Positions 1 through 48,859 of a DNA stretch of 64,000 nt are shown here, piece after piece. The translations under genes and the position numbers were made by a program. How positions within the stretch are numbered: position 1 is the first letter of the stretch; each line of letters starts with the position of its first letter. Source of the stretch: an uncultured Bacteroidota bacterium (GTDB lineage Bacteria > Bacteroidota > Bacteroidia > Flavobacteriales > Flavobacteriaceae); assembly GCA_902581145.1 (NCBI GenBank), contig CACHNE010000008.1, positions 1 through 64,000 of the forward strand, written 5' to 3'. The notes below the pieces were generated by a model. The model saw only the letters and a list, made by a program, of their open reading frames with translations. It had not been told where the DNA came from and did no database searches.

Positions 1-1
1 A

Positions 2-916: not shown

Positions 917-919
917 GAT

Positions 920-2695: not shown

Positions 2696-2705
2696 ATTAA
2701 AACCT

Positions 2706-2730
2706 TAAAACAAATAATTGTTTTATTTTA
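2706..2730 (+). terminator. Putative terminator between nrdA and the convergent PiT gene
   Basis: An 8-bp AT-rich stem (TAAAACAA / TTGTTTTA) with a 4-base loop is followed by TTTTAA. It lies just past the nrdA stop and 3' of the convergent transporter gene, so it could act on both strands. The stem is weak, so the call is tentative. Confidence 0.4.
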
Positions 2731-4987
2731 ATTCGGTTTCTGATTTAATAGAATAGTAATTTTCTAATAGTTCTTTTAAAGCAGTAAGAATTTCAGAGCA
2801 TAGACTAAGTATTTCCAAGTGTAATTTATCGTACCTTTTGTTGTCTTGGTTTTCTTCTTTGTATCTTTTGATTTGGTTCTCAATCTCATCCATTGCTTGA
2901 ATTATATCTAATAGAACATCCTCAATTTTTTTGAAGTCCTTATTGATAAAGATATTTATAACACTCTCAAATAATCTTTTAAAATTAAGATCAAGACCTA
3001 ATAAAACTTTTATGTTACTGAGTGGAAGTTTTCTTCTGTCCTCATCTACATGTTTAAGAGTTATCTTAGAAATTTTTCTTAGCCTTTTTGTTATCTGTGT
3101 TAATTTATCTAAAATTATTAGATAAAACTCTGTAGCTTTTTTGTTCGCTTTTTTATTAGACTTCAGATAATTAAAGATATTTTCTTGAAGTTCATCTACT
3201 TCATCACTTAACTTAGTTATTTGACGACTATTTTTCTTTAATAGTTTTATATCACTTTTAGAGATTCCTTCGGTTGTAAAAGTGAATATTTTAATACTTC
3301 TATTTAATACATTTTCTATATTTTTAGAGCTTTCTTTGATAACTCCGTCAAGTGTGTTTTTTTCAATTTCCAGTATTTCATTTTCTAACTTAAGTTTTTT
3401 TGCTTCTTTGTTATATCTCAAGTAATTTCTATAAAGTAAGATGCATGTAAATAAGAACAAAATTGGCATAAAAAACAAACTTGTTTCCATTAGTAAAGCA
3501 ACAAGTGCAGCAGCTGAAAATGCAACAATAGCTGTAATAAACCATCCTCCAATTACGTTTAATACTCCTGAAACTCTGAAGATTGCACTTTCACTTCCCC
3601 ACGCCCTATCAGATAATGAAGTTCCCATGGCAACCATAAATGTAACATAAGTTGTTGATAATGGTAATTTGTATGAGGTTGCAATTGAAATTAATATGGA
3701 TGCAACAATTAAATTAACCGATGCACGAACCATATCAAATGCGGGTTTTTCGATTATTGTATTTGATAATAGTAATTGATTTGAAGGAGCAAATCTATTT
3801 TCAATTATTTCTTTAATTTTTGCTGGAACAATTTTTTGAATTCCACTATTTAATTTGACAAAAAACTTTACTAGATATTTAGCTAATATGTTTGCTTTAA
3901 ACTTTTCCTTTATTTCACTTTGATCCGATAAATCAATTGAAGTTTTTAATACATTTTTTGCCCGTGATGAAAACCACAGTGTGATAACCATTATAGCACC
4001 AGCAAAAAATAAAATAAGATTTGGAGTTTCCACCTTTGATGAAAGTATTCCCATGCTGAGTTGATCTGCAGGTACACCTGAAATTGTCCATGCTTCATAT
4101 GATTGCCATGCAGCAATTGGTACACCAATGAAATTAACCAGATCATTACCTGCAAATGCCAAAGCTAATGCAAAGGTGCCAACAAGGATTATTATTTTGT
4201 AAATATTGGTTCTATATACTTCAATTAAAAAAAATGACATCAAAGACCATATTAATGTCAAGTATATAATTATTTGTGAGGCATTCCTTTCGATTAGATT
4301 ATTAATTGTTTCACCCTGAAAATAATCGAAAGTGATTTCAGAGTATGAAGTTCCTTTGATTCCTTTAATCAGTATAAAGTATGTTATAGAAGTTATTGCA
4401 ATCCCCCCAAAAATTGATGAAACAATATTTGATTTTCTTTTAAAATCAAAACTTAATATTAATCTTGACACCCACTGTACAATAGCACCTATTGTAAATG
4501 CAATAAAAACAGATAATATTATACCCAATATAATTTGCGTTGCTTTTGAGTAATTAATGTAGGTGATAAGCTCATTAATTGATTGACTGTTTTCCCATAT
4601 TTTGTAAGCTGCTATCGAAACAGCCGCTCCTAGTAATTCAAAAACAATTGAAACTGTAGTTGACGTAGGCAGCCCAAGAGTATTAAAAAAATCCAACAAA
4701 AGAATATCAGTTATCATGACCGCAAGAAAAATAATCATGATTTCATCGAAATAGTACAATTCTGGGTTGAATATTCCTTTTCTTGCAACCTCCATCATTC
4801 CACTTGAAAATATTGCCCCCAAAGCAATTCCAAAACTGGCTATTATCATTATTTTTTTAAATGACACTGCCTTTGATCCAATTGCTGAGCTTAAAAAATT
4901 TACAGCATCATTACTTACTCCAACAATCAGGTCAGCAATTGCAAGAAATCCCAGCGCTAAAACAAAAAATAAGTAAAGATTTTCCAA
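2723..4987 (-). CDS. PiT-family inorganic phosphate transporter with C-terminal PhoU-like domain
   Basis: Inner-membrane ion-coupled phosphate permease of the PiT/PHO4 family. Both halves of the inverted repeat are recognisable: the first signature has GVSNDAVNF (Asn26, Asp27) and the second FAGNDLVNF (Asn281, Asp282). The accessory LPTSTT (about 106-111) and LPLSTTYV motifs are also present. Hydrophobic segments cover roughly residues 1-525. The last 210 residues are soluble, charged and helical, with a coiled-coil-like segment around 530-560 followed by a PhoU-like helical bundle, so transporter and PhoU-type regulator are one polypeptide. At 754 residues it is much longer than a plain PiT (about 420-500). 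It is divergent from the MORN-like gene, with 222 bp between them. The neighbouring phytase and PlcP-like genes support a phosphate role. Confidence 0.92.
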   Translation of the reverse strand: MENLYLFFVLALGFLAIADLIVGVSNDAVNFLSSAIGSKAVSFKKIMIIASFGIALGAIFSSGMMEVARKGIFNPELYYFDEIMIIFLAVMITDILLLDFFNTLGLPTSTTVSIVFELLGAAVSIAAYKIWENSQSINELITYINYSKATQIILGIILSVFIAFTIGAIVQWVSRLILSFDFKRKSNIVSSIFGGIAITSITYFILIKGIKGTSYSEITFDYFQGETINNLIERNASQIIIYLTLIWSLMSFFLIEVYRTNIYKIIILVGTFALALAFAGNDLVNFIGVPIAAWQSYEAWTISGVPADQLSMGILSSKVETPNLILFFAGAIMVITLWFSSRAKNVLKTSIDLSDQSEIKEKFKANILAKYLVKFFVKLNSGIQKIVPAKIKEIIENRFAPSNQLLLSNTIIEKPAFDMVRASVNLIVASILISIATSYKLPLSTTYVTFMVAMGTSLSDRAWGSESAIFRVSGVLNVIGGWFITAIVAFSAAALVALLMETSLFFMPILFLFTCILLYRNYLRYNKEAKKLKLENEILEIEKNTLDGVIKESSKNIENVLNRSIKIFTFTTEGISKSDIKLLKKNSRQITKLSDEVDELQENIFNYLKSNKKANKKATEFYLIILDKLTQITKRLRKISKITLKHVDEDRRKLPLSNIKVLLGLDLNFKRLFESVINIFINKDFKKIEDVLLDIIQAMDEIENQIKRYKEENQDNKRYDKLHLEILSLCSEILTALKELLENYYSIKSETELK

Positions 4988-5003
4988 GCTTAATTATTTC
5001 AGA

Positions 5004-5011
5004 CAAATTTA
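5004..5011 (-). promoter_or_regulatory. Candidate -7 box for the PiT gene
   Basis: The minus strand reads TAAATTTG, a full match to the Flavobacterium -7 consensus TAnnTTTG, 17 bases upstream of the transporter ATG. No TTG is seen at the usual -33 distance. The site therefore either needs an activator or is a chance match. Confidence 0.4.
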
Positions 5012-5126
5012 CATTTATTATTGCTTTTATCATTAGCTAAATGTTAAGAATTCCTCTGTTTTTGATTGATTTTTACATATTTTGTATATATATAAAATAT
5101 TGATAATCAATTATTTAAAGAAGTAA

Positions 5127-5142
5127 TGTTAATTTAATGTTA
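5127..5142 (+). promoter_or_regulatory. TGTTA direct repeat with 11-bp period (Pho-box-like)
   Basis: Two TGTTA pentamers begin at 5127 and 5138, exactly 11 bp apart. This is the spacing of the two half-sites in E. coli Pho boxes and of TTAACA repeats in Bacillus PhoP boxes. It lies in the divergent region between the phosphate transporter and the MORN-like gene, upstream of the promoter at 5152-5181. Binding by a PhoB/PhoP-like regulator is an inference. Confidence 0.4.
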
Positions 5143-5151
5143 TGTAAATGT

Positions 5152-5181
5152 TTGAAAAATGTAAACAAATAATTATATTTG
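5152..5181 (+). promoter_or_regulatory. Sigma-A-type promoter for the MORN-like gene
   Basis: TTG at 5152-5154, a 19-bp spacer, and TATATTTG at 5174-5181 match the Flavobacterium housekeeping promoter (TTG, 17-23 bp, TAnnTTTG). The start codon at 5210 lies 28 bases past the box, leaving a short untranslated leader. Confidence 0.65.
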
Positions 5182-5195
5182 TTAACATAATGTTA
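5180..5195 (+). promoter_or_regulatory. Second TGTTA direct repeat overlapping the -7 box and start site
   Basis: TGTTA occurs at 5180-5184 and 5191-5195, again 11 bp apart, and contains the core GTTAACAT (5181-5188) that recurs upstream of both TonB-dependent receptor genes. It overlaps the end of the -7 box and the expected transcription start. If a regulator binds here it would more likely repress this promoter, or serve the opposite strand. Confidence 0.4.
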
Positions 5196-5209
5196 TTAAA
5201 CATATTGTT

Positions 5210-5581
5210 ATGAAAAATATTTATCTCTTATTTACATTGTTATTTTTCTTTTGTTACTCTCAATCTACTGTAGCTCAAAATGAAAATAAATTAATTGAAT
5301 ATAATGAGTTCACTGATCTAATCGATGTAACATATTTCTATGAAGATGGTTCTGTGCAACAGACTGGCTCTTTCAATACTAACGGTCTTCCGCATGGAAA
5401 GTGGACCGCTTATAATATGAATGGAAAAAAATTATGTGTTGGTAATTACAAAAACGGATTAAAAGATGGAAAATGGTATTTCACATTATCCGATAAGACT
5501 CAAGCTGTAGATTATATTAATTCCAAGATTATCTCTGTTGAAAATAATTTTAAAAATGAAATAGCCGTATTAGATAAATAG
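5210..5581 (+). CDS. Small exported protein with MORN-like / YwqK-type repeats
   Basis: 123 residues beginning with a signal peptide (hydrophobic residues 4-20, likely cleavage after TVAQ). The mature part holds two copies of a YEDGSVQQTGSF...G-HGKW pattern typical of MORN-variant repeats in proteins labelled YwqK-like antitoxins: around residues 44-66 (NGLPHGKWTAY) and 67-90 (NGLKDGKWYF). It is probably periplasmic or attached to the outer membrane; no catalytic residues can be proposed and the antitoxin label is not supported by any toxin neighbour. It is a single-gene unit with its own promoter upstream and a clear terminator downstream. It sits divergently from the phosphate transporter and shares Pho-box-like repeats with it, so it may belong to the phosphate response. 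Confidence 0.75.
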   Translation: MKNIYLLFTLLFFFCYSQSTVAQNENKLIEYNEFTDLIDVTYFYEDGSVQQTGSFNTNGLPHGKWTAYNMNGKKLCVGNYKNGLKDGKWYFTLSDKTQAVDYINSKIISVENNFKNEIAVLDK

Positions 5582-5602
5582 TTTCATTTATATATATAAT
5601 TG

Positions 5603-5635
5603 AAAAAGACTGTTTGAAAAAACAGTCTTTTTTTT
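5603..5635 (+). terminator. Rho-independent terminator after the MORN-like gene
   Basis: Perfect 12-bp stem AAAAAGACTGTT / AACAGTCTTTTT with a 6-base loop, running into a T-tract ending at 5635. It starts 22 bases after the stop codon. This is one of the clearest intrinsic terminators in the window. Confidence 0.85.
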
Positions 5636-5747
5636 GATTAATAAGTGTGGACTAAAAACTAATTAAAATGTACATATAAAATTAGCTTCTAATTTATTTA
5701 GTTCTGTGAACAAACAATTAAGTAATCTTTAATTAATCCGTATAGTT

Positions 5748-6773
5748 TCAACCTCCTGTTTTTAGGTTTGACAGAATGGGTATTCTGGGAAGTCTTTTTA
5801 TATAATCAATTAAAATTCTGTCAACTATATCTCTTGTATCTTGATTTAAATCTACTAAGATTTGATTTTCACTCTTAATCCATTTAGAAATCTTCTTGGA
5901 ATCTAATTTTTTTATTGATTCATATCCCATTTTTTTTAGACAAAAAGCATTATACTTTTGCTCAAATTGATTTTTCATCGGAATAACTAATAACTTCTTT
6001 TTGAGAAAAATAGCCTCTGAAGTGGTTTCAAATCCAGCATTACAGATTACACCCTCACAGGTCGAAATACTTTTAATAAATAAATTTTGACTTATAGGTT
6101 TAAAAATAAAGTTTCCATAAGTTTTTGATTTTGATACCTCTTTAGTAAAAACATGAAAATTTATATTCTTTATATCCTTTAATTTTTGAGTTATCCTTTT
6201 TACTGAGTATGAGGGAAGATAAACCGTGTAGTGAGATAATTTTTCAGGTCTAATTTTTAATAATCTTTTTTTTATAACTGGTGAAAAAATTTTTCCCCCT
6301 AAACTCTGATAATGAATACCATAGCCAATGCTTACGGGGCAATAATATTTTAAAAATAGCCTATGTAAACAGTTGTAATTTGGAAGCTTTGGTGTTTCCG
6401 GATTTAACATAGAAAATTGATTACTTAAACCAATACATTCTTTTCCATAGAATTTACAAGCCCATGAAGAAATTGGCTCAAAATCTGAAATTATCAAGTC
6501 ATAATCGTACACATTTAACGACCTTATATCTCTAATAAACTGTATCAGTTTTAAGTTAACTATAGACTTCCAAAAATCAATCCCTCCCTTTTTACCAAAT
6601 GCAAAACTAATACCCTCAAAATAGTATTTAACCTTATGATTAAGCTTCAAAGTTGAGTTTTTACCGCTTACTAAAATATCTAAATTTACCCTTCTTTCAA
6701 GAATTGGTATTATCTCATTTGCTCGAGAAATATGACCATTTCCTGTTCCTTGTATTGCATATAACACTTTCAT
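5748..6773 (-). CDS. Glycosyltransferase of the GT-B / MGT type, likely glycolipid synthase
   Basis: 341 residues. The N-terminal acceptor-side Rossmann motif GTGNGHISRA (about 9-18) and the C-terminal donor-side block CNAGFETTSEA followed by P...QFEQ are typical of GT-B enzymes related to MurG and diacylglycerol glycosyltransferases. There is no signal peptide; hydrophobic patches suit a membrane-surface enzyme. The start ATG overlaps the stop of the upstream metallophosphoesterase by one base (TAATG), so translation is probably coupled. In marine heterotrophs, PlcP releases diacylglycerol from phospholipid and a neighbouring glycosyltransferase (Agt) glycosylates it under phosphate starvation. 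The same pairing here makes that role the best guess. The sugar donor and acceptor cannot be read from the sequence. Confidence 0.75.
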   Translation of the reverse strand: MKVLYAIQGTGNGHISRANEIIPILERRVNLDILVSGKNSTLKLNHKVKYYFEGISFAFGKKGGIDFWKSIVNLKLIQFIRDIRSLNVYDYDLIISDFEPISSWACKFYGKECIGLSNQFSMLNPETPKLPNYNCLHRLFLKYYCPVSIGYGIHYQSLGGKIFSPVIKKRLLKIRPEKLSHYTVYLPSYSVKRITQKLKDIKNINFHVFTKEVSKSKTYGNFIFKPISQNLFIKSISTCEGVICNAGFETTSEAIFLKKKLLVIPMKNQFEQKYNAFCLKKMGYESIKKLDSKKISKWIKSENQILVDLNQDTRDIVDRILIDYIKRLPRIPILSNLKTGG

Positions 6774-7609
6774 TATTTGAGTAAATTATAATCTTGAAGA
6801 ATTTCATTAAAAAACTCGTTAATTGGCCTATTTTCTTCCTTAAAATCAAATTCACTGTATTCAAACCTGTATAAACTCCATTTATTTTTTTTGTACTCTA
6901 ATGATGTTAAATTTTCAATCCAATCCCCTGAATTTAAATATTTTACATTTTTACCTTTTGATTTAAATTCCTTAATACATGGTTCATGAATATGTCCACA
7001 AACAACTGAGTCATAATTATTGTCACTAGCAATATCAACAATTGTATTTTCAAATTGATTTATAAATTTTACTGCTAATTTAATTTTACCTTTTATTTTT
7101 TTTGAAAATGAATATTTTTCCTTTTTAATCAGAAATAATATTTTATTCATTACGAGATTTATCTGAATTAGCAAATCATATCCATAACCACCAAGACGTG
7201 TTAACCACTTTGAGTATTGCATGGTGACATCAAATATATCACCATGAAAAAACCAGGTTTTTTTGCCATTAAGATTTAATACTAACTTATTTGATATTTC
7301 AAGGCCTGACATTTTAAACCCAACAAGCCTTCTTAATTCCTCATCGTGATTTCCAGTTATATAATGAACTTTTACCCCTTTTGATATCCATTTTAGGATT
7401 AATCTAATAAGTTTAGTGTGATATATATCCCAGTATTTTTTTTTGAATTGCCACATATCAATGATGTCACCATTCATTATCAACATTCTAGGCTTAACAC
7501 TTCTTAGGTAGAAATATAGTTCTTTGGCCTTAGATCCAATAGATCCCAGATGTACATCCGAGATAACAATAATATCAACAGCTCTATACTTTTTGTTTTT
7601 CTCAACCAT
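6773..7609 (-). CDS. plcP: PlcP-type metallophosphoesterase (COG2908; LpxH-like), probable phospholipase C
   Basis: Calcineurin-like two-metal phosphoesterase, 278 residues. Visible metal-site motifs: Asp18-V-His20 (ISDVHLG), Asp48 (NGDIID), Asn87-His88 (GNHDE), His122 (FHGDIFDV) and GHIH at 205-208. The signature blocks HGDIFDV..KWL..LG..GYD, the AVKFI..FE helix and YLNSGDWIEN match the longer PlcP branch of the family (about 275 residues) better than canonical LpxH (about 240). PlcP cleaves phospholipid head groups to diacylglycerol when phosphate is scarce. The translationally coupled glycosyltransferase downstream and the phytase and TonB receptor upstream support this. The alternative is a UDP-2,3-diacylglucosamine hydrolase for lipid A synthesis. 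Assay or phylogeny would decide; the family assignment itself is firm. Confidence 0.85.
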   Translation of the reverse strand: MVEKNKKYRAVDIIVISDVHLGSIGSKAKELYFYLRSVKPRMLIMNGDIIDMWQFKKKYWDIYHTKLIRLILKWISKGVKVHYITGNHDEELRRLVGFKMSGLEISNKLVLNLNGKKTWFFHGDIFDVTMQYSKWLTRLGGYGYDLLIQINLVMNKILFLIKKEKYSFSKKIKGKIKLAVKFINQFENTIVDIASDNNYDSVVCGHIHEPCIKEFKSKGKNVKYLNSGDWIENLTSLEYKKNKWSLYRFEYSEFDFKEENRPINEFFNEILQDYNLLK

Positions 7610-7613
7610 AATG

Positions 7614-7621
7614 CAAAATTA
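7614..7621 (-). promoter_or_regulatory. Candidate -7 box for plcP-glycosyltransferase
   Basis: The minus strand reads TAATTTTG, matching TAnnTTTG, but only 4 bases before the plcP ATG. If used, the transcript would be leaderless or start inside the gene. No -33 TTG is seen at the right distance. Confidence 0.3.
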
Positions 7622-7674
7622 TGTTGAGTTAGGGAATATATTTTTAAGGGAAATTTAACTAATAGTTATTTTTA

Positions 7675-8706
7675 TTATTTCGATATTTTATTCCAGTCGA
7701 TTATTTTAAAATTTTGAAAGCCATCATCATTAAAACCATCTTGGACTACTAAAATTCCTTTTTTATATTTCGAAGTTCCCAAATTACTGACCTCAATTCC
7801 GTCAGTGTCAGAGGTGCCATCTACCTCGGGCCCATCAATAATCGTAACAAAACTTTTTAATATTAATGCGGCTCTGTCAATCAATGCATATCCATTACTA
7901 CCTTGAACCGAAACAACAATACTTCCTTCCCCATCACTTTTCTCATAAAGTGCTAGACCTTCAAAATCTTTTTTAAACTTTTTACTAACACCAAATATCA
8001 TTTTTCTTTCTTCTGGAATATTTGGATCAGCATTTATCTGCCATAAACCTTTATTTTCTTCTGCTACATAAAGTTTATTATAATATTCATCTGCTACTAG
8101 TCCTTCGATTAAGGTCTTAAATTTTAATGTTCTAATTTTTTCGATTGAAAGTTCATTTTCAATTTGATTAAGCTTCCACTGTTCAACTTTTCCGGAATCC
8201 TTATCACTAACAAAAATATATGTATCAAATTCATTTTGATAAAATGTAATTCCGTAGACATCACCCAAATCTGATGTATTATTTTTATTTAAAATTAATT
8301 CAAGAGAATTATTTTCAGTATTTAGTTTATACAATTCGATGCTATTGGTCGTTCTGTTTGACCCACAAACTAAAGGGAATGATTGACCATTTAGATTGAA
8401 CTTATTAATTATATCAACATTGTTAACCCTGCCAAAAGGATAATGATTGATTATTTTACCGTCTAATCCGTAAATAACCAAGCCATACTTTTTATCAGTC
8501 GCTATAATTAGAGAGCTATCAGGATATTGATAATTATTATAAATACAAATATCATCAGCTGCATCATCATTGGTTATTACCGGTTCAGTTTCTAAATCTG
8601 CAACCACCTCTTTAACAACGTAAGAGCCAGTAAATACTGGCTCTTGACTATATGTTGTTAAACTTAATACTACAAAAAAAGTAGTTAAAAAAGTAGATTT
8701 ATTCAT
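7675..8706 (-). CDS. Secreted beta-propeller phytase (3-phytase family)
   Basis: 343 residues with a signal peptide (about 1-20, ending LTTYSQ). The mature protein matches the BPP phytase fold: an early DDAADDICIY block, repeated blades with IIATDKKYGLVIYGLDGK, NRTTNSIELYKLN, FVSDKDSGKVEQWKL and YVAEENKGLW, and late acidic motifs such as DGPEVDGTSDTDGIEV that bind calcium in this family. The enzyme releases phosphate from inositol hexakisphosphate and probably acts in the periplasm or at the outer membrane. Its start lies 3 bp after the stop of the TonB-dependent receptor gene, so receptor and phytase are co-transcribed. The pair suggests uptake of phytate or other organic phosphate. About 65 bp then separate it from plcP. 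Confidence 0.88.
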   Translation of the reverse strand: MNKSTFLTTFFVVLSLTTYSQEPVFTGSYVVKEVVADLETEPVITNDDAADDICIYNNYQYPDSSLIIATDKKYGLVIYGLDGKIINHYPFGRVNNVDIINKFNLNGQSFPLVCGSNRTTNSIELYKLNTENNSLELILNKNNTSDLGDVYGITFYQNEFDTYIFVSDKDSGKVEQWKLNQIENELSIEKIRTLKFKTLIEGLVADEYYNKLYVAEENKGLWQINADPNIPEERKMIFGVSKKFKKDFEGLALYEKSDGEGSIVVSVQGSNGYALIDRAALILKSFVTIIDGPEVDGTSDTDGIEVSNLGTSKYKKGILVVQDGFNDDGFQNFKIIDWNKISK

Positions 8707-8709
8707 TTT

Positions 8710-11436
8710 CTAAAAATCATATTTCAATCCAACATTCCAATTATAACTATAATATTCAAGTTGCATTGTTCTTTCTTTAACACCTTGGAAATATCTTAGT
8801 GGTTGATTTGTTAAATTCTTTGCTTCTGCAAAAATACTTAATTTATCTGAAAGTCTATAGGTAGCATTTAAATCAACAAAAAGTTGTTCATCATAGTACC
8901 TATCTTCCCATGGATCTCCCCCAATTTCATCTAAAGCTTCTCCTGCAAAGTTAACAGATGCTCTTACAAAAAACTTCTTGCTTTCATAAGCTAAAGATGC
9001 ATTATACATGTTTTCAATTGCACCCGCAAGTGGAACATCATCTCTACCCTCAATTCCATCAGTACTTGAGTCTGTAAAAGTATAATTAGCCATTAATGTG
9101 AAGTTTTTAAGCAGCCTAGTTTGTAATCCAAATTCAAGACCAGTAACAGAGGCATTGGAACCATTTCTTACTTGTTCGTATTCATAATCAGGAGTACCAT
9201 TATAAACATAATTTTCAGTTGTAAATGTGTATAACCAGTTATCAATATTTTTGTAGAACGCTCCAACAGAAATTAATCCTGTTCCTCCAAAATAGTAATC
9301 AAGCATTAGGTCAAAATTATTTGACAGAGATGCTTCTAAATCAGGGTTACCTACTGCAATTTCTTCATCACTAGAAACTACCGCTTGATAAGGAACCAAG
9401 TCATAATAATTTGGTCTAGCAATACTATTGCTGTAACCCAAATTAGCAATAAACTTATCACTAAACTCGTGTTGTAAATTCAAGCTTGGAAGTATGTTTG
9501 AATATGAGTTTGATCCAGAAACACTTTCGATATCATCAACTGAATTATAATCACCATCCTCATCGTAAACCCTTCCTGTGTAATCTATATCTGTGTGTTC
9601 AAACCTTGCACCAACAACTACAGTTGTCTTATCTCCTAATTTGTCGGTAACCATAGCGTACGCTGCGGCAACTTTTTCGTCAGCACTATAAATTTCCCCG
9701 GCAAATTCCTCAAATAAAATTTCACTTCCATCACCAGAGTAAAAGTCTTGAGCCCCTAACCATTCAGCAGTTGCAAAATTTCCTAGCATGTACTGATCAC
9801 CTGGCTCATAGCCATCAATTGAAGCATTAAAATAATCAGCGTCAGCCATTGTGTCAAATGGGAAACCGTCTTCAAAACCTTCCCAGAAGTCATTTCTCAT
9901 TTTTTCTTTTACTTTATACTTGGCACCAAACTTAAATTTGTCATCTCCATCATTATAAGGTAATTCAAAGTTTATTTGAGCGCTTGAATTTTCTTCTTCA
10001 GTGTATTTTTGTGCTTGTTCAAAATGTCTGAATCCATATTCAGCAGGATCATTCCATTCATTTCCAGAAAAGTTAAATACAGGATATTCAGGATCACTCA
10101 AATCAATTGAGTTAAGTGGAACACTACTATTTTGAAACCTAACATATCTTTCATTAGGTCTTTCTTCGCTAGCTTTAGATGTACTTACTTTCCAATCAAT
10201 TTGTAAATTTCCAGCTAAGTGATCACCACCAAACGAAATTTTACTAACTCTTTGATCTTCTAATCTTCTGTTGTCATTTATATCATCACCAATACCACCT
10301 TTTGTTTGTTTTCTAACCCTTACTCCTTCTGAAGGATCAGCTGTCCAATCATCGATATTTGCAATTCTTACTCTAAATCTATTTTCCCAATCATCTCTGT
10401 GATTGTATATGGTCTTTAAAAATAAAGAGTTGTTATCATTTATTTCATAATCAAGGTTTAAACCAACGCTCCTTCTTGTACGCTTTACATCATATCTTCT
10501 TATATCATGTTCTCCAATAGCGCCTTCTTCAGCCCAATCGTCTGGATCATTCCATTCAAATTCAATATTATCCGATCCATAACTTTTGGTTTGAATAGAC
10601 GTACTAAATGAGTAGCTAAGTTTATCGTTCATTTTATCTGCCATTACAAAAGCAAAATTAGAGTTAGAACCATCTGATCTAATAGGTTCATCACCTGCTG
10701 AAAGAGTTGCAGATGCCCTGAATGAGCTTGGATTAGATCTTGTTACTAAATTAACAGAACCTCCAATAGCATCTCCTTCCATATCAGGGGTCATGGATTT
10801 GTTAACCTCTATTGTTTGAATCATGGCTGAAGGAATCAGGTCAAGTTGAACATTTCTATTATCACCCTCAGCAGACGGAATTCTATCTCCGTTAAGTGTT
10901 ACAGAGTTCAATGCCGAAGCAAAACCTCTTATCACAATATTTCTAGCTTCACCTTGGTCTCCTTGCATAGACACCCCAGCAACTCTCTTTAAAACGTCAC
11001 CGACATTATCGTCAGGAAATTTTCCAACCTGGTCAGCAGAAATAATGTTCGTAACATTTAAATCAGATTTTTGCTGATTTAATCCTTTAACAATTCCACT
11101 GGAATATCCAGAGACAACAATTTCAGCTAATTCAGTAGCTGATGGCTCTAATGTAAAATCTTTTGTAGTTGTTGAGTTATCGGTTAACTCAACAGATGCA
11201 GTAGCACCTTCAAATCCTATATAGGATACTTTAATTTCAACAGAACCAGAATCCAGATTTACAAATCTGTAGAATCCGTTAAAATCAGAAACAGCACCTT
11301 TATCTCCATCAACTATTAATGTAGCACCAGGAAGAGGAAATCCGTTTGAATCAATAACTCTACCCTTTAGGTTTGATTGCGAAAATGCAAATGTAAAAGA
11401 AAATAGAGTTAAAACAAGAAGAGTGATTTTTTTCAT
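8710..11436 (-). CDS. TonB-dependent outer-membrane receptor linked to phytase
   Basis: 908 residues. Order of parts: signal peptide (1-19, ending FAFSQ), a carboxypeptidase-regulatory-like beta-sandwich (about 22-105, with KGRVIDSNGFPLPGATL), a TonB-box-like LAEIVVSG (about 104-111), a plug domain (about 115-235, with VLKRVAGVSMQG and NIVIRGF) and a 22-strand-type barrel ending in Phe. It is of the stand-alone type, since no SusD-like lipoprotein follows. The co-transcribed phytase suggests that the ligand is phytate, an inositol phosphate or another organophosphate; this is inferred from context only. The upstream region holds a 17-bp inverted repeat with Pho-box-like half-sites. Import would need the ExbB/ExbD motor, a candidate for which is encoded at 28.2-30.5 kb. 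Confidence 0.92.
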   Translation of the reverse strand: MKKITLLVLTLFSFTFAFSQSNLKGRVIDSNGFPLPGATLIVDGDKGAVSDFNGFYRFVNLDSGSVEIKVSYIGFEGATASVELTDNSTTTKDFTLEPSATELAEIVVSGYSSGIVKGLNQQKSDLNVTNIISADQVGKFPDDNVGDVLKRVAGVSMQGDQGEARNIVIRGFASALNSVTLNGDRIPSAEGDNRNVQLDLIPSAMIQTIEVNKSMTPDMEGDAIGGSVNLVTRSNPSSFRASATLSAGDEPIRSDGSNSNFAFVMADKMNDKLSYSFSTSIQTKSYGSDNIEFEWNDPDDWAEEGAIGEHDIRRYDVKRTRRSVGLNLDYEINDNNSLFLKTIYNHRDDWENRFRVRIANIDDWTADPSEGVRVRKQTKGGIGDDINDNRRLEDQRVSKISFGGDHLAGNLQIDWKVSTSKASEERPNERYVRFQNSSVPLNSIDLSDPEYPVFNFSGNEWNDPAEYGFRHFEQAQKYTEEENSSAQINFELPYNDGDDKFKFGAKYKVKEKMRNDFWEGFEDGFPFDTMADADYFNASIDGYEPGDQYMLGNFATAEWLGAQDFYSGDGSEILFEEFAGEIYSADEKVAAAYAMVTDKLGDKTTVVVGARFEHTDIDYTGRVYDEDGDYNSVDDIESVSGSNSYSNILPSLNLQHEFSDKFIANLGYSNSIARPNYYDLVPYQAVVSSDEEIAVGNPDLEASLSNNFDLMLDYYFGGTGLISVGAFYKNIDNWLYTFTTENYVYNGTPDYEYEQVRNGSNASVTGLEFGLQTRLLKNFTLMANYTFTDSSTDGIEGRDDVPLAGAIENMYNASLAYESKKFFVRASVNFAGEALDEIGGDPWEDRYYDEQLFVDLNATYRLSDKLSIFAEAKNLTNQPLRYFQGVKERTMQLEYYSYNWNVGLKYDF

Positions 11437-11473
11437 TTTATTATAATTTTATAAAGTAAAGTAACACTTGATT

Positions 11474-11489
11474 TGTAAAGTTAATGTTA
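11474..11489 (-). promoter_or_regulatory. Pho-box-like direct repeat upstream of the receptor-phytase operon
   Basis: On the minus strand TTAACA and TTTACA lie with an 11-bp period (plus strand: TGTAA at 11474, TGTTA at 11485). It is placed about 40 bp upstream of the receptor start codon and overlaps one arm of the long inverted repeat. No convincing TAnnTTTG box follows, which would suit an activator-dependent promoter. Confidence 0.4.
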
Positions 11490-11518
11490 ACTAAATAAAA
11501 ATATTTAGTTAACATTAA
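11481..11518. repeat. Perfect 17-bp inverted repeat, candidate operator
   Basis: Arms 11481-11497 and 11502-11518 are exact reverse complements around an AAAA loop, and each arm contains ATGTTAAC or GTTAACAT. The stem is AT-rich with no T-tract that would make a strong terminator, though it could also slow transcription leaving the upstream receptor gene. Its position between the two receptor genes, and the core it shares with 5181-5188 and 14443-14450, suggest a protein-binding site. Confidence 0.55.
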
Positions 11519-11550
11519 TTAAGGGTAAATTGGTGATTATCAGCTATATA

Positions 11551-14367
11551 TTAAAACTTTAAACTATAGCCAATCGAAATTTCTGTACCTTGATTTCTGT
11601 ATGTCCAAATTTCATCAGAGATATTAAAGGATTCATAAACACTTTCTTTTTTACTATTTAGAATATTTTTTGCTTTAATGCTGATTGAAGATTTTCCATC
11701 ATCATCTAGGTATTTAGTTAAATTGAAATTAAGACTATGAAAAGGAACTGTGTAAACATCTGGAACAATTCCAGTACCTACCACCTCCAATGTTCTTCCT
11801 TGGACATTATAAAACAGTCCATATTGAAACCCAGTGTCTTCATTTAAAAATTCGATATTTGAATTTATTAGAAAAGGGGATTGACCTTGTAAGTCTCTGG
11901 TTGTTGAAATCGTTTCCCCATCTCTTGCAGCATTCAATCTATTATTATATTCATCTTCAAACATTTCAAGAGATGATTCTATTAATGATGCGTTAAGTGA
12001 GAATCTCCATTTTCTAATATCATCAGAGATGAAGTTTAAGGGTTTCCTTATTTCAAATTCAGCACCATATACTTTAGCTGACCCAAGATTTCTTGCAGTT
12101 AATTGATTTGGGGCTGAAGCAAAAAATGTCAATTCAATTGGATCTTTAAAAGTTTTATAAAAACCACTTATTGCAATAATATCACCCTTATCTCCAAATA
12201 CCTCATATCTAAAATCTATATTATCAATATAGGATGGCTTCAAATCTAGATTTCCAATAAATAACCTATCAGAAATTGCATCATAAATTTGAGCTCTTGA
12301 GGCTTCCTTAAAGGAAGGGCGCGCCGTAGTTTTTGAATACGAAGATCTTAAATTTGAATTTTCGTTTAAGCTCAAAATTAGATTTGCAGATGGATAAATA
12401 TCAAAATTATCTATAATTTTAGAATTGTTAAATATCTCACTACCACTTTGGTTTTGGCCGGTGTAAAAGGACTGAAATAATTCTGTTCTAACACCCAATA
12501 CAGACTTTAAATTCTTTAACAACTCAAATTCATTTGAAAAATATCCAGCATAGATTCTTTGTTCTCCTTCGTAAGAGTTAGCAGGTTGATAAAGATTGCC
12601 AAATAAAAGGTGAACACCTTGTTGTGATGTTGGAGTCCAAATGTTTTCAGAACTCAATAATGTATTTGCATCTCCATTTGTGACTACTGGATTCGTAGAG
12701 GTAAAAAGATAACTATCTAATTCAAAATCCCTGGATTTATAAGTCATACTACCACCAAATTTTAGCTTTGCAGGCTGTTCCTTAATTGTATATTTCTTCA
12801 AAAAATTAATTTGATTTGCAATATTAAATTCCGAAAGATCTCTCCAAACTCTTTGCGGATACCCTGACGAACTAGGAGCAATTATTGCGGTTCCGTCCTG
12901 AGTAATTTGAAATGAGGTTGTTCTATGATCTTTATCTTTTACAGTTGAAAATGTTGGTGATATTTTCCATTCTGTTTTCCAACCTTTTTCCCCATTGTGT
13001 ATTCCGTTCAACAAAATATTAGTAACTGATCTTTGAGTGTATTGTATGACATCTTTTGTGTATTGCTCAATTCCTCCTCCAGCACCACCTTGTGAAGCTT
13101 CTTGATTAAAGAATCCTCCAACAGATTCACCATTTTGAATATGTAAAAGGTTAAATTTATATTTAGAATTTTCCCTTTTATAAACTAATCCAGCAAGACC
13201 ACTAAGTATTATGTTATTCACACCTTCATCTCCAGAGCTTAGCCTACTAGTAAGCAGATTATAATTGGATGTGTCATTTGGATCTTTAGTTAATCTGTTA
13301 TCAATTCTGTCCTTGTAAAATGAAGTTTCATTTCTGTATGACAAAGAGAATTGATAACCCAATTTATCGTCTTTACCGACATCGAATTGATTGCCAGTCG
13401 TAAACCCAAAATTAAAATCATTTTTACTAGTTTTTCTTTCAGCTTTTAGAATTGGATTAAAAGATGAAGTGAGTTGGGTTAATACAATATCATTATCAAA
13501 TGTGCCAGGAATATATTGAAATCTGCTAATAGGAATATCTCTAGATCCACTATCAAATCCAATAAAATCTGTATTCTCGTTTGGACCATTTAAATAATCA
13601 TTTTTAAAATGCATTTCAGAGTTGTATGAAGTTCCTAGTGAAAAAGATGATTCTTTTTTAGTTGGAAAGTCCTTGGTTACAATGTCAACAACACCTCCAG
13701 TAAAATCTGCAGGATATTCTGCCGCAGCACTTTTAATAACAATTATATTTTCGAGAATATTTGTTGGAAAAATATCCATTTGAATAGTATTTCTGTCTGG
13801 ATCTAGACCAGGAATATCAACTCCGTTTAAAATGGATTTCGTATACCTATCTCCAAGTCCTCTAACATAAACATATTTACCTCCTTGCACTGAAACACCA
13901 GGAACAGATTTTACAGCACTTGCAATATTACTTGCCCCAGCTTTCTTAATTCCTTGAGATGAAAGCCCGTCAAGCATTACAGCAGATTTTTTTTGAATAT
14001 CTAATACAGCAGACTCAGTATTTTTTCTTACTGTAGTGGTAATTACAATTTCATCTAAAGTATTAGTAGATAGAGTAACATCTAGTTGTTCAACTTCATC
14101 ACTTTTTATAATTACTTCGCTTACTTCGATCGTTTGGTATCCAACAAAAGAGAATGTTAAAGTATATTCACCTGGTTCAAGATCTAATGAATATTTTCCA
14201 TCAAAATCTGTTGTAGTTCCTATTGTTGAACCTTTAACAATTACATTTGCAAACGCCATTGGTTCGTCATATTCACCGTCCATTACTAAGCCACTAATTT
14301 TCCCTTCTTGAGAAAATATAATTGAGGTTAAGGCTAGTGTAACAAAGAATAATAAGTTTTTTTTCAT
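11551..14367 (-). CDS. TonB-dependent outer-membrane receptor, second in the island
   Basis: 938 residues from the ATG at 14367. A longer frame reaching 14418 would run through a terminator hairpin and lacks a signal peptide at its front, so it was rejected. Parts in order: signal peptide (1-19, ending IIFSQ), carboxypeptidase-regulatory-like domain (about 22-105), plug (about 130-245, with SAVKSVPGVSVQGG and YVRGLGDRYT), then a barrel ending in Phe (SIGYSLKF). The gene follows a surface lipoprotein gene but is separated from it by a strong terminator and a candidate promoter, so it can be expressed on its own. The substrate is unknown; location in a phosphorus-related island and the GTTAACAT motif upstream suggest regulation by phosphate. 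Confidence 0.92.
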   Translation of the reverse strand: MKKNLLFFVTLALTSIIFSQEGKISGLVMDGEYDEPMAFANVIVKGSTIGTTTDFDGKYSLDLEPGEYTLTFSFVGYQTIEVSEVIIKSDEVEQLDVTLSTNTLDEIVITTTVRKNTESAVLDIQKKSAVMLDGLSSQGIKKAGASNIASAVKSVPGVSVQGGKYVYVRGLGDRYTKSILNGVDIPGLDPDRNTIQMDIFPTNILENIIVIKSAAAEYPADFTGGVVDIVTKDFPTKKESSFSLGTSYNSEMHFKNDYLNGPNENTDFIGFDSGSRDIPISRFQYIPGTFDNDIVLTQLTSSFNPILKAERKTSKNDFNFGFTTGNQFDVGKDDKLGYQFSLSYRNETSFYKDRIDNRLTKDPNDTSNYNLLTSRLSSGDEGVNNIILSGLAGLVYKRENSKYKFNLLHIQNGESVGGFFNQEASQGGAGGGIEQYTKDVIQYTQRSVTNILLNGIHNGEKGWKTEWKISPTFSTVKDKDHRTTSFQITQDGTAIIAPSSSGYPQRVWRDLSEFNIANQINFLKKYTIKEQPAKLKFGGSMTYKSRDFELDSYLFTSTNPVVTNGDANTLLSSENIWTPTSQQGVHLLFGNLYQPANSYEGEQRIYAGYFSNEFELLKNLKSVLGVRTELFQSFYTGQNQSGSEIFNNSKIIDNFDIYPSANLILSLNENSNLRSSYSKTTARPSFKEASRAQIYDAISDRLFIGNLDLKPSYIDNIDFRYEVFGDKGDIIAISGFYKTFKDPIELTFFASAPNQLTARNLGSAKVYGAEFEIRKPLNFISDDIRKWRFSLNASLIESSLEMFEDEYNNRLNAARDGETISTTRDLQGQSPFLINSNIEFLNEDTGFQYGLFYNVQGRTLEVVGTGIVPDVYTVPFHSLNFNLTKYLDDDGKSSISIKAKNILNSKKESVYESFNISDEIWTYRNQGTEISIGYSLKF

Positions 14368-14380
14368 ATTAGTTTGTTTT

Positions 14381-14416
14381 AAAAAAAAGTGCCTGAGTAA
14401 AATTTTACTCAGGCAC
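14381..14416 (-). terminator. Strong intrinsic terminator between lipoprotein and TonB receptor genes
   Basis: A perfect 28-bp palindrome (14389-14416, each arm GTGCCTGAGTAAAA or its complement) is followed on the minus strand by eight T. It ends transcripts from the upstream lipoprotein gene. The receptor ATG lies 14 bases beyond, so read-through or a promoter just upstream must supply the receptor mRNA. Confidence 0.85.
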
Positions 14417-14423
14417 AAATCTA
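14416..14423 (-). promoter_or_regulatory. Candidate -7 box for the second TonB receptor
   Basis: The minus strand reads TAGATTTG (TAnnTTTG), directly before the terminator palindrome. No TTG lies at -33; instead the inverted repeat 14429-14458 with the GTTAACAT core occupies the -35 zone. That is the layout expected where a bound activator replaces the -33 contact. A transcript from here would start inside the palindrome. Confidence 0.45.
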
Positions 14424-14428
14424 TTTTA

Positions 14429-14458
14429 TAAGTTAAGTAAACATGTTAACTAAACTTA
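14429..14458. repeat. Imperfect 30-bp inverted repeat carrying GTTAACAT, candidate operator
   Basis: Arms TAAGTTAAGTAAAC and GTTAACTAAACTTA are reverse complements except at two positions, around a central AT. The minus strand carries TTTAGTTAACAT, a 12-mer also present upstream of the phytase-linked receptor. A further TGTTA at 14466 lies 22 bp (two 11-bp periods) from that at 14444. Confidence 0.5.
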
Positions 14459-14478
14459 TTGTATGTGTTAACAAATTA

Positions 14479-15717
14479 TTACCAACCTAAACCAGCTGCA
14501 GCATTTGCATATGTCCATGCTAAAGCAGATGTGTCACATCCAACTGTTTGTGATCCAGCTGCAACATTTGAAGCAGTAGATCCAAAACCTGTAACAGTAA
14601 CATTATCAGCTCTATTGTTAAATATTTCTTCTAGGCTATCACCATCTGGTACTTCAATCTGCCAAGTTCCAAAAGTTAATTTTTCTTCATTATAATTAGT
14701 CGCAACACCATCATTATCTAATTCAACATCTTTTCCTGCAAAGAAGTTATATGCAGCTACATTGTTAGATGCTCCCATCGCATTTGATCTGTAGTCAGCA
14801 TACTCACCACCTTCAGCATCAAAATAACCAACCAATGTAATGTTGTTAAGTGTGAATGAATCCTCCATAGAACCTTCTGGTCCGTCAATCTCTAATCCAT
14901 GGTCAGAGTTAGCTCCAGCAAGTACAATTGCATTGCTTACAGTACCAGAATATGCTTGGTCAATATCAATTAAATCATCACCACAAGCCCAAACAAGAGC
15001 ATTGGTAACATCAACTGTTCCACCAAAGAATTCGATTCCATCATCAGAGTTAGCCACTACTTCAATGTTATTGATAGTAGTTCCGTTACCAACACCACCA
15101 AGTGTTAATCCGTTAATCTCATTATCTGCACCAATTACAGCACCACCGTGTCTAATAGATACATAAGAAATAGTTCCAGAATTATCACCCGCATTACTTC
15201 CTCCGTATAGACCAAATGTATCGTCTGCAGGAATTCCTTCGATTTGTAATTCAGAAACATCACCACTAAACGAAGAAGGTGCATTTCCTAATACTAATAG
15301 ACCTCCCCAAAGACCTTGATCGGTAGCACCTAAATTAGTACCAGCGGTTTGTCCCACTTCTATATTATCAGAAACAGAAGTAAAAATAATTGGAGCATCA
15401 GCTGTACCAACAGCATTAATCATTCCTCCTCTTGCAACTACAAGTGCAGAAGCTAAAGAACCTTGACCAGCACTACCTTTAATAATAGTACCAGCTTCAA
15501 TGTTAAGTGTCGCACCAGCGTCTACAACAACTTTTTGGTTAAGAACATAAATATTGTTCGAAGTCCAGTTGTGAGTTCCTTGAAGCATTCCAGTAACATT
15601 AATAATTTCAGAAACTGGATCTACTGGATCTACTGGATCTACTGGAGCAGGGTCGTTATCATCGTCACATGCATTAAATGCAAATAAGGCGATTGCTAAT
15701 AATAGTAATTTTTTCAT
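14479..15717 (-). CDS. Surface lipoprotein with parallel beta-helix, partner of the second TonB receptor
   Basis: 412 residues. The signal peptide ends in FNAC, a lipobox. Cys17 is followed by DDDND, resembling the acidic lipoprotein export signals that place Bacteroidota lipoproteins on the cell surface. Next comes a proline-rich linker of DPV repeats (about 27-36), then a long repeat-rich, Asn/Gly/Ala-rich region (NNIEVVANSDDGIEFFGG, NAIVLAGANSDHGLEIDG) typical of right-handed beta-helices. No catalytic residues are recognised. Relatives are often mislabelled as multidrug transporters, but there are no membrane helices here. It lies upstream of a TonB receptor on the same strand, so it may capture or bind the same ligand. 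A strong terminator between the two allows different expression levels. Confidence 0.75.
   Translation of the reverse strand: MKKLLLLAIALFAFNACDDDNDPAPVDPVDPVDPVSEIINVTGMLQGTHNWTSNNIYVLNQKVVVDAGATLNIEAGTIIKGSAGQGSLASALVVARGGMINAVGTADAPIIFTSVSDNIEVGQTAGTNLGATDQGLWGGLLVLGNAPSSFSGDVSELQIEGIPADDTFGLYGGSNAGDNSGTISYVSIRHGGAVIGADNEINGLTLGGVGNGTTINNIEVVANSDDGIEFFGGTVDVTNALVWACGDDLIDIDQAYSGTVSNAIVLAGANSDHGLEIDGPEGSMEDSFTLNNITLVGYFDAEGGEYADYRSNAMGASNNVAAYNFFAGKDVELDNDGVATNYNEEKLTFGTWQIEVPDGDSLEEIFNNRADNVTVTGFGSTASNVAAGSQTVGCDTSALAWTYANAAAGLGW
15614..15646. repeat. Three and a half tandem copies of a 9-bp unit in the lipoprotein linker
   Basis: ACTGGATCT is repeated exactly three times, followed by a partial copy. 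In the lipoprotein frame each unit adds Asp-Pro-Val. Perfect units of three codons permit slippage without frameshift, so linker length may vary between strains. Confidence 0.8.
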
Positions 15718-15827
15718 TATTGTTTTAGTTTTAAATTATGACACAAATAAACAATCAGAATTAAAGATTTTAATAACCTTATCCTTAACTTTTTATTAAT
15801 TAAATGTTATTGAAAGTAGAGTTTATG

Positions 15828-16520
15828 TTAAGTAATTGTTTTCTTCTTTTTCTTTATTTCGTAGTTATAACTTAACCTTAAGATATGAAGAGTTGGATTT
15901 TGATTATTTAAGTATTTTTGAATTATATATCTTACAGATAAACTTTTTCTTTTTTTCAGATTAAATTTTGTCCCCACATAAACCCTATACCTTTCATAAT
16001 TTTCACCAAAGTTAATTTCGTCTCTAAGAAACATTTCAAAACCAATTCTCGGGTCGTATTTCCAATTTTTAATGTCGTATTCACTGTCTAATTTTAATCT
16101 CCAAAAATTTCTATGTTCTGGATTATCAATTTTATTTTGAATCTTTTTTTGATACTGGATTCTGAATCTAAAATTTAAATTTTTGTAGTCCAACGACTTT
16201 CTAATATAGGCGTGATATCGGTTAAATTTTTCATGACCTTGAATTCCACCTTCATCGTCTAATTCGTCCAAATTTCTGTAACCCAACCCAAAAACTAATT
16301 TTTTTTGAATTTTAAAATCTGATTCAAGTTCAAAAAATGATTTCTTGTATGTTTTACCGATTGATTTTAGTCTAAGGGTACCTGAAAAGTTAAGGTTTAC
16401 AAAATCATTTAATTTGTGTTCCACACCAACTTTTGACCAGCTTTCATAAACTTCATTATTTTGTCCGAAAATTGTCAAAAACGACAAAACAAAAAATAGT
16501 AATGATAGTTTGATTTTCAT
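15828..16520 (-). CDS. DUF2490 family outer-membrane beta-barrel protein
   Basis: 230 residues with a signal peptide (about 1-19, ending TIFGQ). The remainder alternates aromatic or hydrophobic with polar residues in short amphipathic strands separated by charged turns (NLNFSGTLRLKS, RYHAYIRKSL, NFRFRIQYQKK, RYRVYVGTKF), which indicates a small outer-membrane barrel. It matches the DUF2490 pattern, whose function is unknown. It lies upstream of the lipoprotein gene on the same strand with about 110 bp between them. It could belong to the same outer-membrane uptake unit, or be independent. The C-terminal KKKKK run is unusual for a barrel, which normally ends in an aromatic residue. Confidence 0.7.
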   Translation of the reverse strand: MKIKLSLLFFVLSFLTIFGQNNEVYESWSKVGVEHKLNDFVNLNFSGTLRLKSIGKTYKKSFFELESDFKIQKKLVFGLGYRNLDELDDEGGIQGHEKFNRYHAYIRKSLDYKNLNFRFRIQYQKKIQNKIDNPEHRNFWRLKLDSEYDIKNWKYDPRIGFEMFLRDEINFGENYERYRVYVGTKFNLKKRKSLSVRYIIQKYLNNQNPTLHILRLSYNYEIKKKKKTIT

Positions 16521-48745: not shown

Positions 48746-48759
48746 ATTTAAATTTTTTT

Positions 48760-48794: not shown

Positions 48795-48821
48795 TTATTA
48801 AACATAATTAATGAAATTACA

Positions 48822-48850: not shown

Positions 48851-48859
48851 CAACCTCAA

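What the first reader, a model, noticed from the sequence alone, without database searches (positions are those of the whole stretch)
2723..16520. Compact phosphorus-scavenging island combining uptake, hydrolysis, lipid remodelling and a shared candidate operator
Within 14 kb lie a PiT permease fused to a PhoU-like domain, a PlcP-type phosphoesterase with a glycosyltransferase, a beta-propeller phytase with its own TonB receptor, a second TonB receptor with a surface lipoprotein, a DUF2490 barrel and a MORN-like exported protein. Each enzyme family is known; the combination, with a recurrent intergenic motif, looks like one regulon in one place. No pstSCAB, phoB or phoR genes are seen in it.
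Basis: partly seen in the sequence, partly recalled or inferred. Interest (0 to 1): 0.7.

Follow-up and report, generated by a model that had tools for sequence, protein, structure and literature searches.

The report
Swappable phosphorus-scavenging gene island
In a group of small-genome Flavobacteriaceae bacteria, one chromosomal spot holds either a simple phosphate-uptake set or an eight- or nine-gene phosphorus-scavenging kit, and the sets appear to have been swapped between lineages, most likely under a phosphate-starvation switch.

Summary
The gene content is real. The 14-kb block encodes a PiT phosphate permease, a PlcP-type phosphoesterase with a glycosyltransferase, a beta-propeller phytase with its own TonB receptor, and a second receptor paired with a lipoprotein. 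The PhoU fusion and MORN assignment are not supported. The gene order recurs in relatives. Phytase, plcP and lipoprotein are found in the same 6 of 21 genus genomes. Eight others show a short alternative at that place: a different PiT (52-55% identical), a porin, and usually DUF2490. Close relatives G011 and G018 have 94-96% identical flanks but different alleles; G018's is 92% identical to that of G016, whose flank is only 79% identical, indicating exchange by recombination. The shared operator is confirmed at two promoters as an 11-bp tandem ATGTTAA array, the architecture of a PHO box, and recurs before homologous genes in other genera. PstS was found in none of 21 genomes; a PhoBR-like pair lies elsewhere. 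Most components correspond, by annotation, to the Flavobacterium johnsoniae PHO regulon. Low-phosphate induction could not be tested.

The parts
2723..4987 (-). PiT-family phosphate permease (PF01384), 754 aa, TTG start seen in the window and three relatives; helical C-terminal tail (about 540-754) of unproven relationship to PhoU
5126..5165 (.). PHO-box-like operator: four ATGTTAA-type units at 11-bp period in the divergent PiT/small-gene gap
   Evidence: 24 of 28, 0 of 500 shuffles; aligned in 5 genomes; near-identical array before the same small gene in another genus, L198
5180..5196 (-). second 11-bp-spaced repeat pair ATAACA-N5-TTAACA in the same gap; not well kept in the other island genomes
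5748..6773 (-). glycosyltransferase (PF13528; TIGR00661 MJ1255 family below its cut-off), probable non-phosphorus glycolipid synthesis
   Evidence: next to a plcP homologue in 7 of 9 plcP loci fetched from outside the genus
6773..7609 (-). PlcP-type calcineurin-like phosphoesterase; a separate, only 27% identical relative (taken as LpxH) lies elsewhere in the same genome
7675..8706 (-). beta-propeller phytase (PF02333) with N-terminal signal-like sequence
8710..11436 (-). TonB-dependent receptor coupled to the phytase (TIGR01782 above cut-off)
   Evidence: adjacent to phytase in Tenacibaculum L015/L044 and in L213-L215
11473..11512 (.). PHO-box-like operator before the receptor-phytase-plcP-glycosyltransferase gene run (includes TTAACA-N5-TTTACA on the minus strand, 11474-11490); overlaps a perfect inverted repeat with 17-bp arms (11481-11518)
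   Evidence: 11-bp repeats also visible at this place in G011 and G008
11551..14367 (-). second TonB-dependent receptor; start taken as the ATG at 14367, not the TTG at 14418
14389..14416 (-). intrinsic terminator hairpin plus T8 between lipoprotein and receptor 2, with compensatory changes among the six aligned genomes
14479..15717 (-). lipoprotein, probable right-handed beta helix (weak model); resembles the FII/FI low-phosphate lipoproteins of F. johnsoniae in context
   Evidence: FII/FI description from PMC8115612
15828..16520 (-). DUF2490 protein, present in both alleles in diverged versions, absent from this site in G008, G011 and G018
16583..17353 (+). TauE-type permease: right flank, shared by both alleles, not part of the island

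Best explanation
The block is a phosphorus-acquisition locus of the PHO regulon and one of two alternative alleles at a fixed chromosomal site (after ribonucleotide reductase genes, before the TauE permease and dgt). Shown by sequence: gene content, conserved order, joint occurrence, alternative allele with shared flanks, recombination signature, 11-bp repeat operators at two promoters, no PstS found in the genus. Inferred: when phosphate falls, the PhoBR-like pair encoded elsewhere activates two main promoters. One drives PiT and the small divergent protein. The other drives a receptor-phytase-PlcP-glycosyltransferase run. The first receptor brings phytate-like organophosphates into the periplasm, where phytase releases phosphate for PiT. 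PlcP and the glycosyltransferase replace phospholipids by glycolipids to spare phosphorus. A third unit makes an abundant surface lipoprotein, with reduced read-through past a terminator into its receptor, as a second organic-phosphorus capture system. Lineages holding the short allele rely on a porin plus PiT for free phosphate; alleles move between lineages by homologous recombination in the flanks.
For: Families. The order PiT-small gene-GT-plcP-phytase-receptor-receptor-lipoprotein is contiguous in G005 (L012), G003 (L014) and G011 (L050) besides the window, split over two contigs in G006, cut by a contig end in G008. Phytase, plcP and lipoprotein are each in the same 6 of 21 genus genomes. 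Short allele PiT-porin in 8 loci, 7 with DUF2490, plus a ninth (G013) cut by a contig end; the porin has no match in the six island loci searched. It passes the Porin_O_P cut-off in G001 and G010, not in G018. Against short-allele genomes, PiT is 52-55% and DUF2490 49-52% identical while nrdA is 86-98% and dgt 91-95% (G018, which has another RNR, dgt 88%). G011 (island) against G018 (short): flanks 96.4% and 94.0% by DNA, inside only PiT at 69%; G018 against G016: PiT-porin 92.1%, right flank 79.0%. The island PiTs form a 100/100 clade; the dgt tree puts G011, G008 and G018 together (100/100). Operators; test outside the genus: 9 of 28 phosphorus-gene intergenic regions against 3 of 83 controls reach 12 of 14 at period 11, against at most 1 of 28 at periods 9, 10, 12, 13 (Fisher P 1.7e-4); with three units 5 of 28 against 3 of 83 reach 16 of 21. 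The short allele also has an 11-bp repeat, TTAACATTGAGTTAACATT, before its porin in 7 of 8 loci and a degenerate form in G018. PstS 0 of 21, control 13 of 14. The PhoBR-like pair is 66% and 49% identical to a pair beside lipoprotein-receptor in L200, with related pairs in L201 and L203. F. johnsoniae genes of the same annotation induced by Pi depletion (PMC8115612).
Against: No expression data. Operators before receptor 2, the lipoprotein, plcP and DUF2490 are not better than shuffles in the window. The exact repeat pair is not enriched genome-wide (21 against 27 for the reversed control). The response regulator scores 208 bits for PhoB, under the curated 296. In F. johnsoniae the OprP-type porin was not induced, and PiT does not appear among induced genes in the passages read. 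All 21 genus genomes are incomplete (56-86%), so single absences are weak; the strength is in the joint pattern. G019 carries an odd PiT fragment beside dgt that fits neither allele. The genome-density P values computed ignore that intergenic DNA is AT-richer, and the 28 regions include related genomes (two Tenacibaculum, for example).
Confidence: 0.75

Rival explanations
1. A vertically inherited phosphorus gene cluster that was lost piecemeal in relatives, with no lateral exchange.
For: Island genes of G011 and the window are about as diverged (75%) as their flanks (77.6%); PiT, small gene, receptor 2 and lipoprotein lie together near dgt in two other genera (L198, L199), so part of the cluster is old.
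Against: Loss cannot give G018 a PiT-porin block 92% identical to G016 beside a 79% flank, nor the conflict of the PiT and dgt trees. Old vertical origin of part of the cluster and later exchange are compatible.
Confidence: 0.15
2. A carbohydrate or general TonB-receptor locus into which a phytase happened to settle; not phosphate-regulated.
For: Receptors have broad substrates (recalled) and the lipoprotein model's best, non-significant matches are beta-helix proteins, many polysaccharide-active.
Against: PiT, PlcP-GT and phytase all point to phosphorus; no polysaccharide-degrading enzyme family was found in the block; PHO-box-like repeats with the right period; lipoprotein-receptor pair beside PhoBR-like genes in other genera and in F. 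johnsoniae (PMC8115612).
Confidence: 0.07
3. The 11-bp repeats belong to another OmpR-family regulator (the one at G000:C3, RprY-like by recall) rather than the PhoB-like one.
For: OmpR-family regulators in general bind tandem half-sites (recalled); a second full-length OmpR-type regulator recurs in the genus and carries Response_reg and Trans_reg_C domains.
Against: Only the PhoB-like pair resembles, at 66% and 49%, genes neighbouring the lipoprotein-receptor pair in other genera; the best NCBIfam match of the regulator is PhoB, and PhoR is second (after PnpS) for the kinase, all below cut-off.
Confidence: 0.12

Closest known systems
Flavobacterium johnsoniae PHO regulon and phosphate utilisation systems PUSI-IV (PMC8115612; passages read)
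   Same: Phytase plus TonB receptor (Fjoh_1367/1368), TonB receptor plus FII lipoprotein (Fjoh_0545/0546), glycosyltransferase, PlcP, OprP-type porin and PhoBR are all listed there; the first six were induced by Pi depletion, phoB modestly, OprP and phoR not
   Different: There the genes are scattered over several loci and the lipoprotein-receptor pair sits in the phoBR operon; here they are in one 14-kb allele without phoBR and next to the PiT gene. Correspondence is by annotation; sequences were not aligned
PlcP-glycosyltransferase lipid-remodelling gene pair (PMC4796936; passages and section 13)
   Same: plcP next to a glycosyltransferase, the commonest neighbour reported (over 25% of isolates), with putative PHO boxes at plcP clusters
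   Different: Here it appears to be the tail of a phytase-receptor transcription unit; the glycosyltransferase was not compared with Agt
PHO box of PhoB/PhoP regulators (PMC4415409, passages)
   Same: 11-nt direct repeat units, seven conserved and four loose bases
   Different: Unit ATGTTAA instead of CTGTCAT (E. coli); resembles the B. subtilis TTAACA-N5-TTAACA box (recalled)
TonB receptor beside a phytase gene in Citromicrobium (PMC3400609, passage)
   Same: Same gene pairing, read there as phytic acid uptake
   Different: Alphaproteobacterium (recalled), no wider phosphorus locus described in the passage
Phosphorus-gene islands of Prochlorococcus and replacement-type flexible genomic islands (recalled, not read)
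   Same: Phosphorus genes vary among close relatives at a fixed place
   Different: Here two alternative alleles, one apparently for phosphate only and one for organic phosphorus plus lipid remodelling, in Bacteroidota

Membership tests
Beta-propeller phytase | full-length PF02333 / homology to Bacillus-type phytase structures | tested here: met
   (residues 4-342, 252 bits over 21)
PiT phosphate permease | PF01384 over cut-off | tested here: met
   114.9 bits over 33.7
PiT-PhoU fusion | recognisable PhoU domain in the C-terminal tail | tested here: inconclusive
   PF01895 18.0 bits under the 23.5 cut-off; hhalign probability 1.3%; model unusable
PlcP | calcineurin-like phosphoesterase distinct from LpxH and paired with glycosyltransferase | tested here: met
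   LpxH models match only below cut-off (50.9 of 134 bits)
PlcP | phospholipase C activity on membrane phospholipids | not testable with these tools
   needs assay
PlcP | sequence grouping with characterised PlcP proteins | not tested
   no characterised PlcP sequence was fetched
MORN-repeat protein | MORN Pfam match | tested here: not met
   no family at E 0.001
PHO box | tandem 11-nt direct repeats upstream | tested here: met
   two promoters; outside the genus
PHO box | binding by PhoB and low-phosphate induction | not testable with these tools
   none
PhoBR (regulator at G000:C1) | curated PhoB/PhoR score | tested here: not met
   208 of 296 bits (TIGR02154), 230 of 334 (TIGR02966); best-matching regulator family is PhoB
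PhoBR (regulator at G000:C1) | orthology to a PhoBR-like pair linked to lipoprotein-receptor genes | tested here: met
   66% and 49% identity to the pair in L200, with a tyrosyl-tRNA synthetase gene nearby in both; no tree was built
F. johnsoniae-type PHO locus (PUSIV) | lipoprotein-receptor pair adjacent to phoBR | tested here: not met
   not adjacent in the window; adjacent in 3 of the 8 lipoprotein loci fetched, out of 29 genomes outside the genus with a match
Replacement-type (allelic) genomic island | shared flanks, sharp borders, alternative content, tree conflict | tested here: met
Mobile integrative island | integrase or tRNA at the borders | tested here: not met
   no integrase among the ten block proteins scanned nor, by eye, among the other ORFs of 1-24 kb; the only tRNAs are at 28 and 49 kb. 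Attachment repeats were not searched for

The most novel reading that the evidence does not exclude
One locus acts as a swappable phosphorus-strategy switch for the genus: lineages trade a phosphate-only allele for an organic-phosphorus and lipid-remodelling allele by homologous recombination, and because no PstS and no convincing free PhoU were found in the genus, phosphate sensing by the PhoBR-like pair must work without them, possibly through the helical tail of the PiT permease encoded at that very locus.
Probability: 0.2. Interest if true: 0.75.

Novelty: new variant of a known kind. Interest (0 to 1): 0.5.

Why it matters
It shows a PHO regulon that is scattered in Flavobacterium packed into a single portable allele, gives a testable PHO-box sequence for Flavobacteriales, and offers a marker (island versus short allele) whose frequency should follow phosphate scarcity. 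It also poses a clear question: how PhoR-like signalling works in a genus where no PstS could be found.

Tried and rejected
PhoU fusion: tested by Pfam, PF01895 genome search, profile-profile comparison and AlphaFold; not supported. Word-based operator TTTAGTTAACAT: no enrichment in the window as a whole. GTTAACA alone is enriched (21 against 10.2 expected, 0 of 100 shuffles) but also sits inside a ribosomal-protein gene, so it was dropped for the 11-bp-period model. The hexamer-pair scan at 11 bp alone did not stand out from other spacings in the window (15 hits at 11 against 4-17 at others). The exact pair TGTTA-N6-TGTWW is not enriched genome-wide (21 against 27 for the reversed control); 4 of the 21 lie in island gaps. 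A PafA-like phosphatase gene has one such pair upstream, but it is not kept in all relatives, so it is not claimed. The inverted repeat at 11481-11518 was considered as the operator itself; it is not kept in G003, G011 or G008. The lipoprotein model is weak (pLDDT 52.5) and Foldseek gave no match at E 0.001; the top matches listed are mostly beta-helix proteins. Conservation of the 5126-5166 block over the rest of its gap is not significant (28 of 41 against 100 of 181 invariant columns, P 0.09).

Rows left out: in the trees, G019 was dropped and matches covering under 75% of a protein, intergenic regions outside 50-700 bases, and L217 (same genus as L212); some genes in the list, among them plcP of L206 and lipoprotein of L198, gave no region that passed, and one counted region (L213) precedes a distant paralogue of the receptors. 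Outside the genus I fetched wider stretches for 8 of 29 genomes with a lipoprotein match and for 9 of 14 close plcP places. The porin family check covered 3 of the 8 short-allele loci.
Full report
What was checked. The window lies in an incomplete genome (G000, 1.29 Mb in 44 contigs, 68.5% complete) of a genus with 21 genomes held. A search of 60 genomes including the 21 of the genus for PF01895 touched the PiT tail in three genus members, among them the window, at 17-18 bits, below the 23.5-bit cut-off; profile-profile comparison with seven PhoU proteins was only just above the shuffle range. I therefore describe a helical tail, not a PhoU fusion.

Gene order and occurrence. The order nrdBA / PiT / small gene / GT-plcP-phytase-receptor / receptor-lipoprotein / DUF2490 / TauE-dgt is repeated in L012 (G005) and L014 (G003), and in two contigs of G006 (L013, L037). 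G011 has the same without DUF2490 and beside another ribonucleotide reductase; G008 is cut by a contig end inside the glycosyltransferase. Phytase is found in 6 of 21 genus genomes; close plcP homologues (74% identity or more) and the lipoprotein are in the same six. The 25-29% plcP hits in nearly all genus genomes I take to be LpxH.

The alternative allele. In eight other genomes (G001, G002, G004, G007, G010, G012, G016, G018) the same site holds PiT and a porin of about 332 aa, with DUF2490 in seven of them. A ninth, G013, shows PiT and part of the porin at a contig end. The porin has no match in the six island loci searched with it (L012, L013, L014, L037, L050, L052). It passes the Porin_O_P cut-off in G001 (24.7 of 20.9 bits) and G010 (23.8) but not in G018. 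Of the remaining six genomes, two (G014, G017) show PiT at a contig edge, one (G019) an odd PiT fragment beside dgt, and three (G009, G015, G020) no PiT match. Across alleles PiT is 52-55% and DUF2490 49-52% identical, while nrdA is 86-98% and dgt 91-95% (in G018, which has another RNR, dgt is 88%). Between G011 (island) and G018 (short) the flanks are 94.0% and 96.4% identical by DNA, yet inside them only PiT aligns, at 69%. G018's PiT-porin block is 92.1% identical to that of G016 and 92.6% to G012, although their right flanks are 79-80% identical. In the PiT tree the island proteins form a 100/100 clade, while the dgt tree unites G011, G008 and G018 at 100/100 and puts the window's group with short-allele G010 at 98/97 (treekit warns of long branches in the PiT tree). 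This is the signature of allele exchange by recombination. No integrase or border tRNA was seen.

Older roots. In two other genera of the family (L198, L199) PiT, a Porin_O_P protein (44 and 46.5 bits), the small gene, receptor 2 and the lipoprotein lie together next to or near dgt. The island therefore looks like an older PiT-lipoprotein locus that lost the porin and carries an added receptor-phytase-plcP-GT run; the short allele keeps PiT and porin. The direction of these changes is inference.

Operators. A PHO box consists of 11-nt direct repeat units (PMC4415409, passages). Scoring ATGTTAA units at 11-bp period, the 64-kb window holds two places with at least 21 of 28: the divergent PiT/small-gene gap (24 of 28; 0 of 500 shuffles; best other period 20) and the gap before the phytase receptor (21 of 28; 1 of 500). 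The same test fails for the gaps before receptor 2, the lipoprotein, plcP and DUF2490. A test outside the genus, with the unit fixed beforehand, gave 9 of 28 phosphorus-gene intergenic regions and 3 of 83 control regions at 12 of 14 or better with period 11; periods 9, 10, 12 and 13 gave 0-1 of 28. Phosphorus regions are longer on average (239 against 173 bases), which the other periods control for; related genomes among the 28 are not independent. The short allele has TTAACATTGAGTTAACATT before its porin in 7 of 8 loci. Searches of the held library listed no paper whose title or abstract start describes a PHO box for Flavobacteriales, nor one on such an exchanged phosphorus locus in this group; most listed papers were not opened. 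PMC4796936 reports putative PHO boxes at plcP clusters without giving a flavobacterial sequence in the parts I read.

Regulator and sensing. PstS (PF12849) was found in 0 of 21 genus genomes, with 13 of 14 controls positive; PstA, PstB and PstC were not searched. Free PhoU was not found except for a fragment on one small contig of G015, the same contig that carries that genome's only over-cut-off PhoB, probably contamination. A PhoB-like regulator with a PhoR-like kinase lies at G000:C1, 66% and 49% identical to a pair that in L200 stands directly beside a tandem lipoprotein gene and receptor 2; L201 and L203 show the same linkage at lower identity. Scores stay under the curated PhoB and PhoR cut-offs, so this assignment rests on position and best match.

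Lipoprotein and receptor 2. A terminator hairpin (14389-14416) with T8 lies between the lipoprotein and its receptor and is kept in all six island genomes, with changes on both sides of the stem in G003 and G011/G008. With no supported operator before the receptor, I infer partial read-through that makes far more lipoprotein than receptor. This fits the F. [quoted passage not shown] FI-FIII are said there to share homology with a low-phosphate lipoprotein of Caulobacter.

Verdict. A genuine phosphorus-acquisition locus of a known regulon type, packed into one exchangeable allele. Regulation and function remain to be measured.

Noticed in passing
L187 (G019:C34) 1-2589: A PiT fragment 81% identical to the island-type PiT, ending before the tail, runs in the same direction into dgt; fits neither allele and may be a rearrangement or assembly fault.
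   Followed up: partly
G000:C6 about 48000-49614 (L250): PF01663 phosphatase gene (PafA-like by recall) beside an MlaE permease gene, with a single 11-bp repeat pair between them that is only partly kept in relatives.
   Followed up: yes
window 1-2705 against L181: nrdBA of the window is 93% identical to G016 although the right flank is only 80.5%, suggesting that recombination tracts also reach into the left flank.
   Followed up: partly
L050 and L188, left flank: G011 and G018 carry a different ribonucleotide reductase (about 823 aa large subunit, 27-28% identical) at the place of nrdBA, so the left neighbour differs too.
   Followed up: partly
G015:C150: Small contig with the only over-cut-off PhoB and a PhoU fragment in the genus; probably a contaminant.
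   Followed up: no
window 39258-39349: GTTAACA palindromes inside the ribosomal protein S9 gene, showing that the bare word is not specific to phosphorus genes.
   Followed up: no
L198 256-2034: In genus g9 a Na+/Pi-cotransporter (PF02690) lies next to the PiT gene, so that locus gathers yet another phosphate importer.
   Followed up: partly
L200 7527-9908: In G031 the lipoprotein homologue is a 793-aa tandem duplication, two copies in one frame, directly beside the PhoB-like gene.
   Followed up: no
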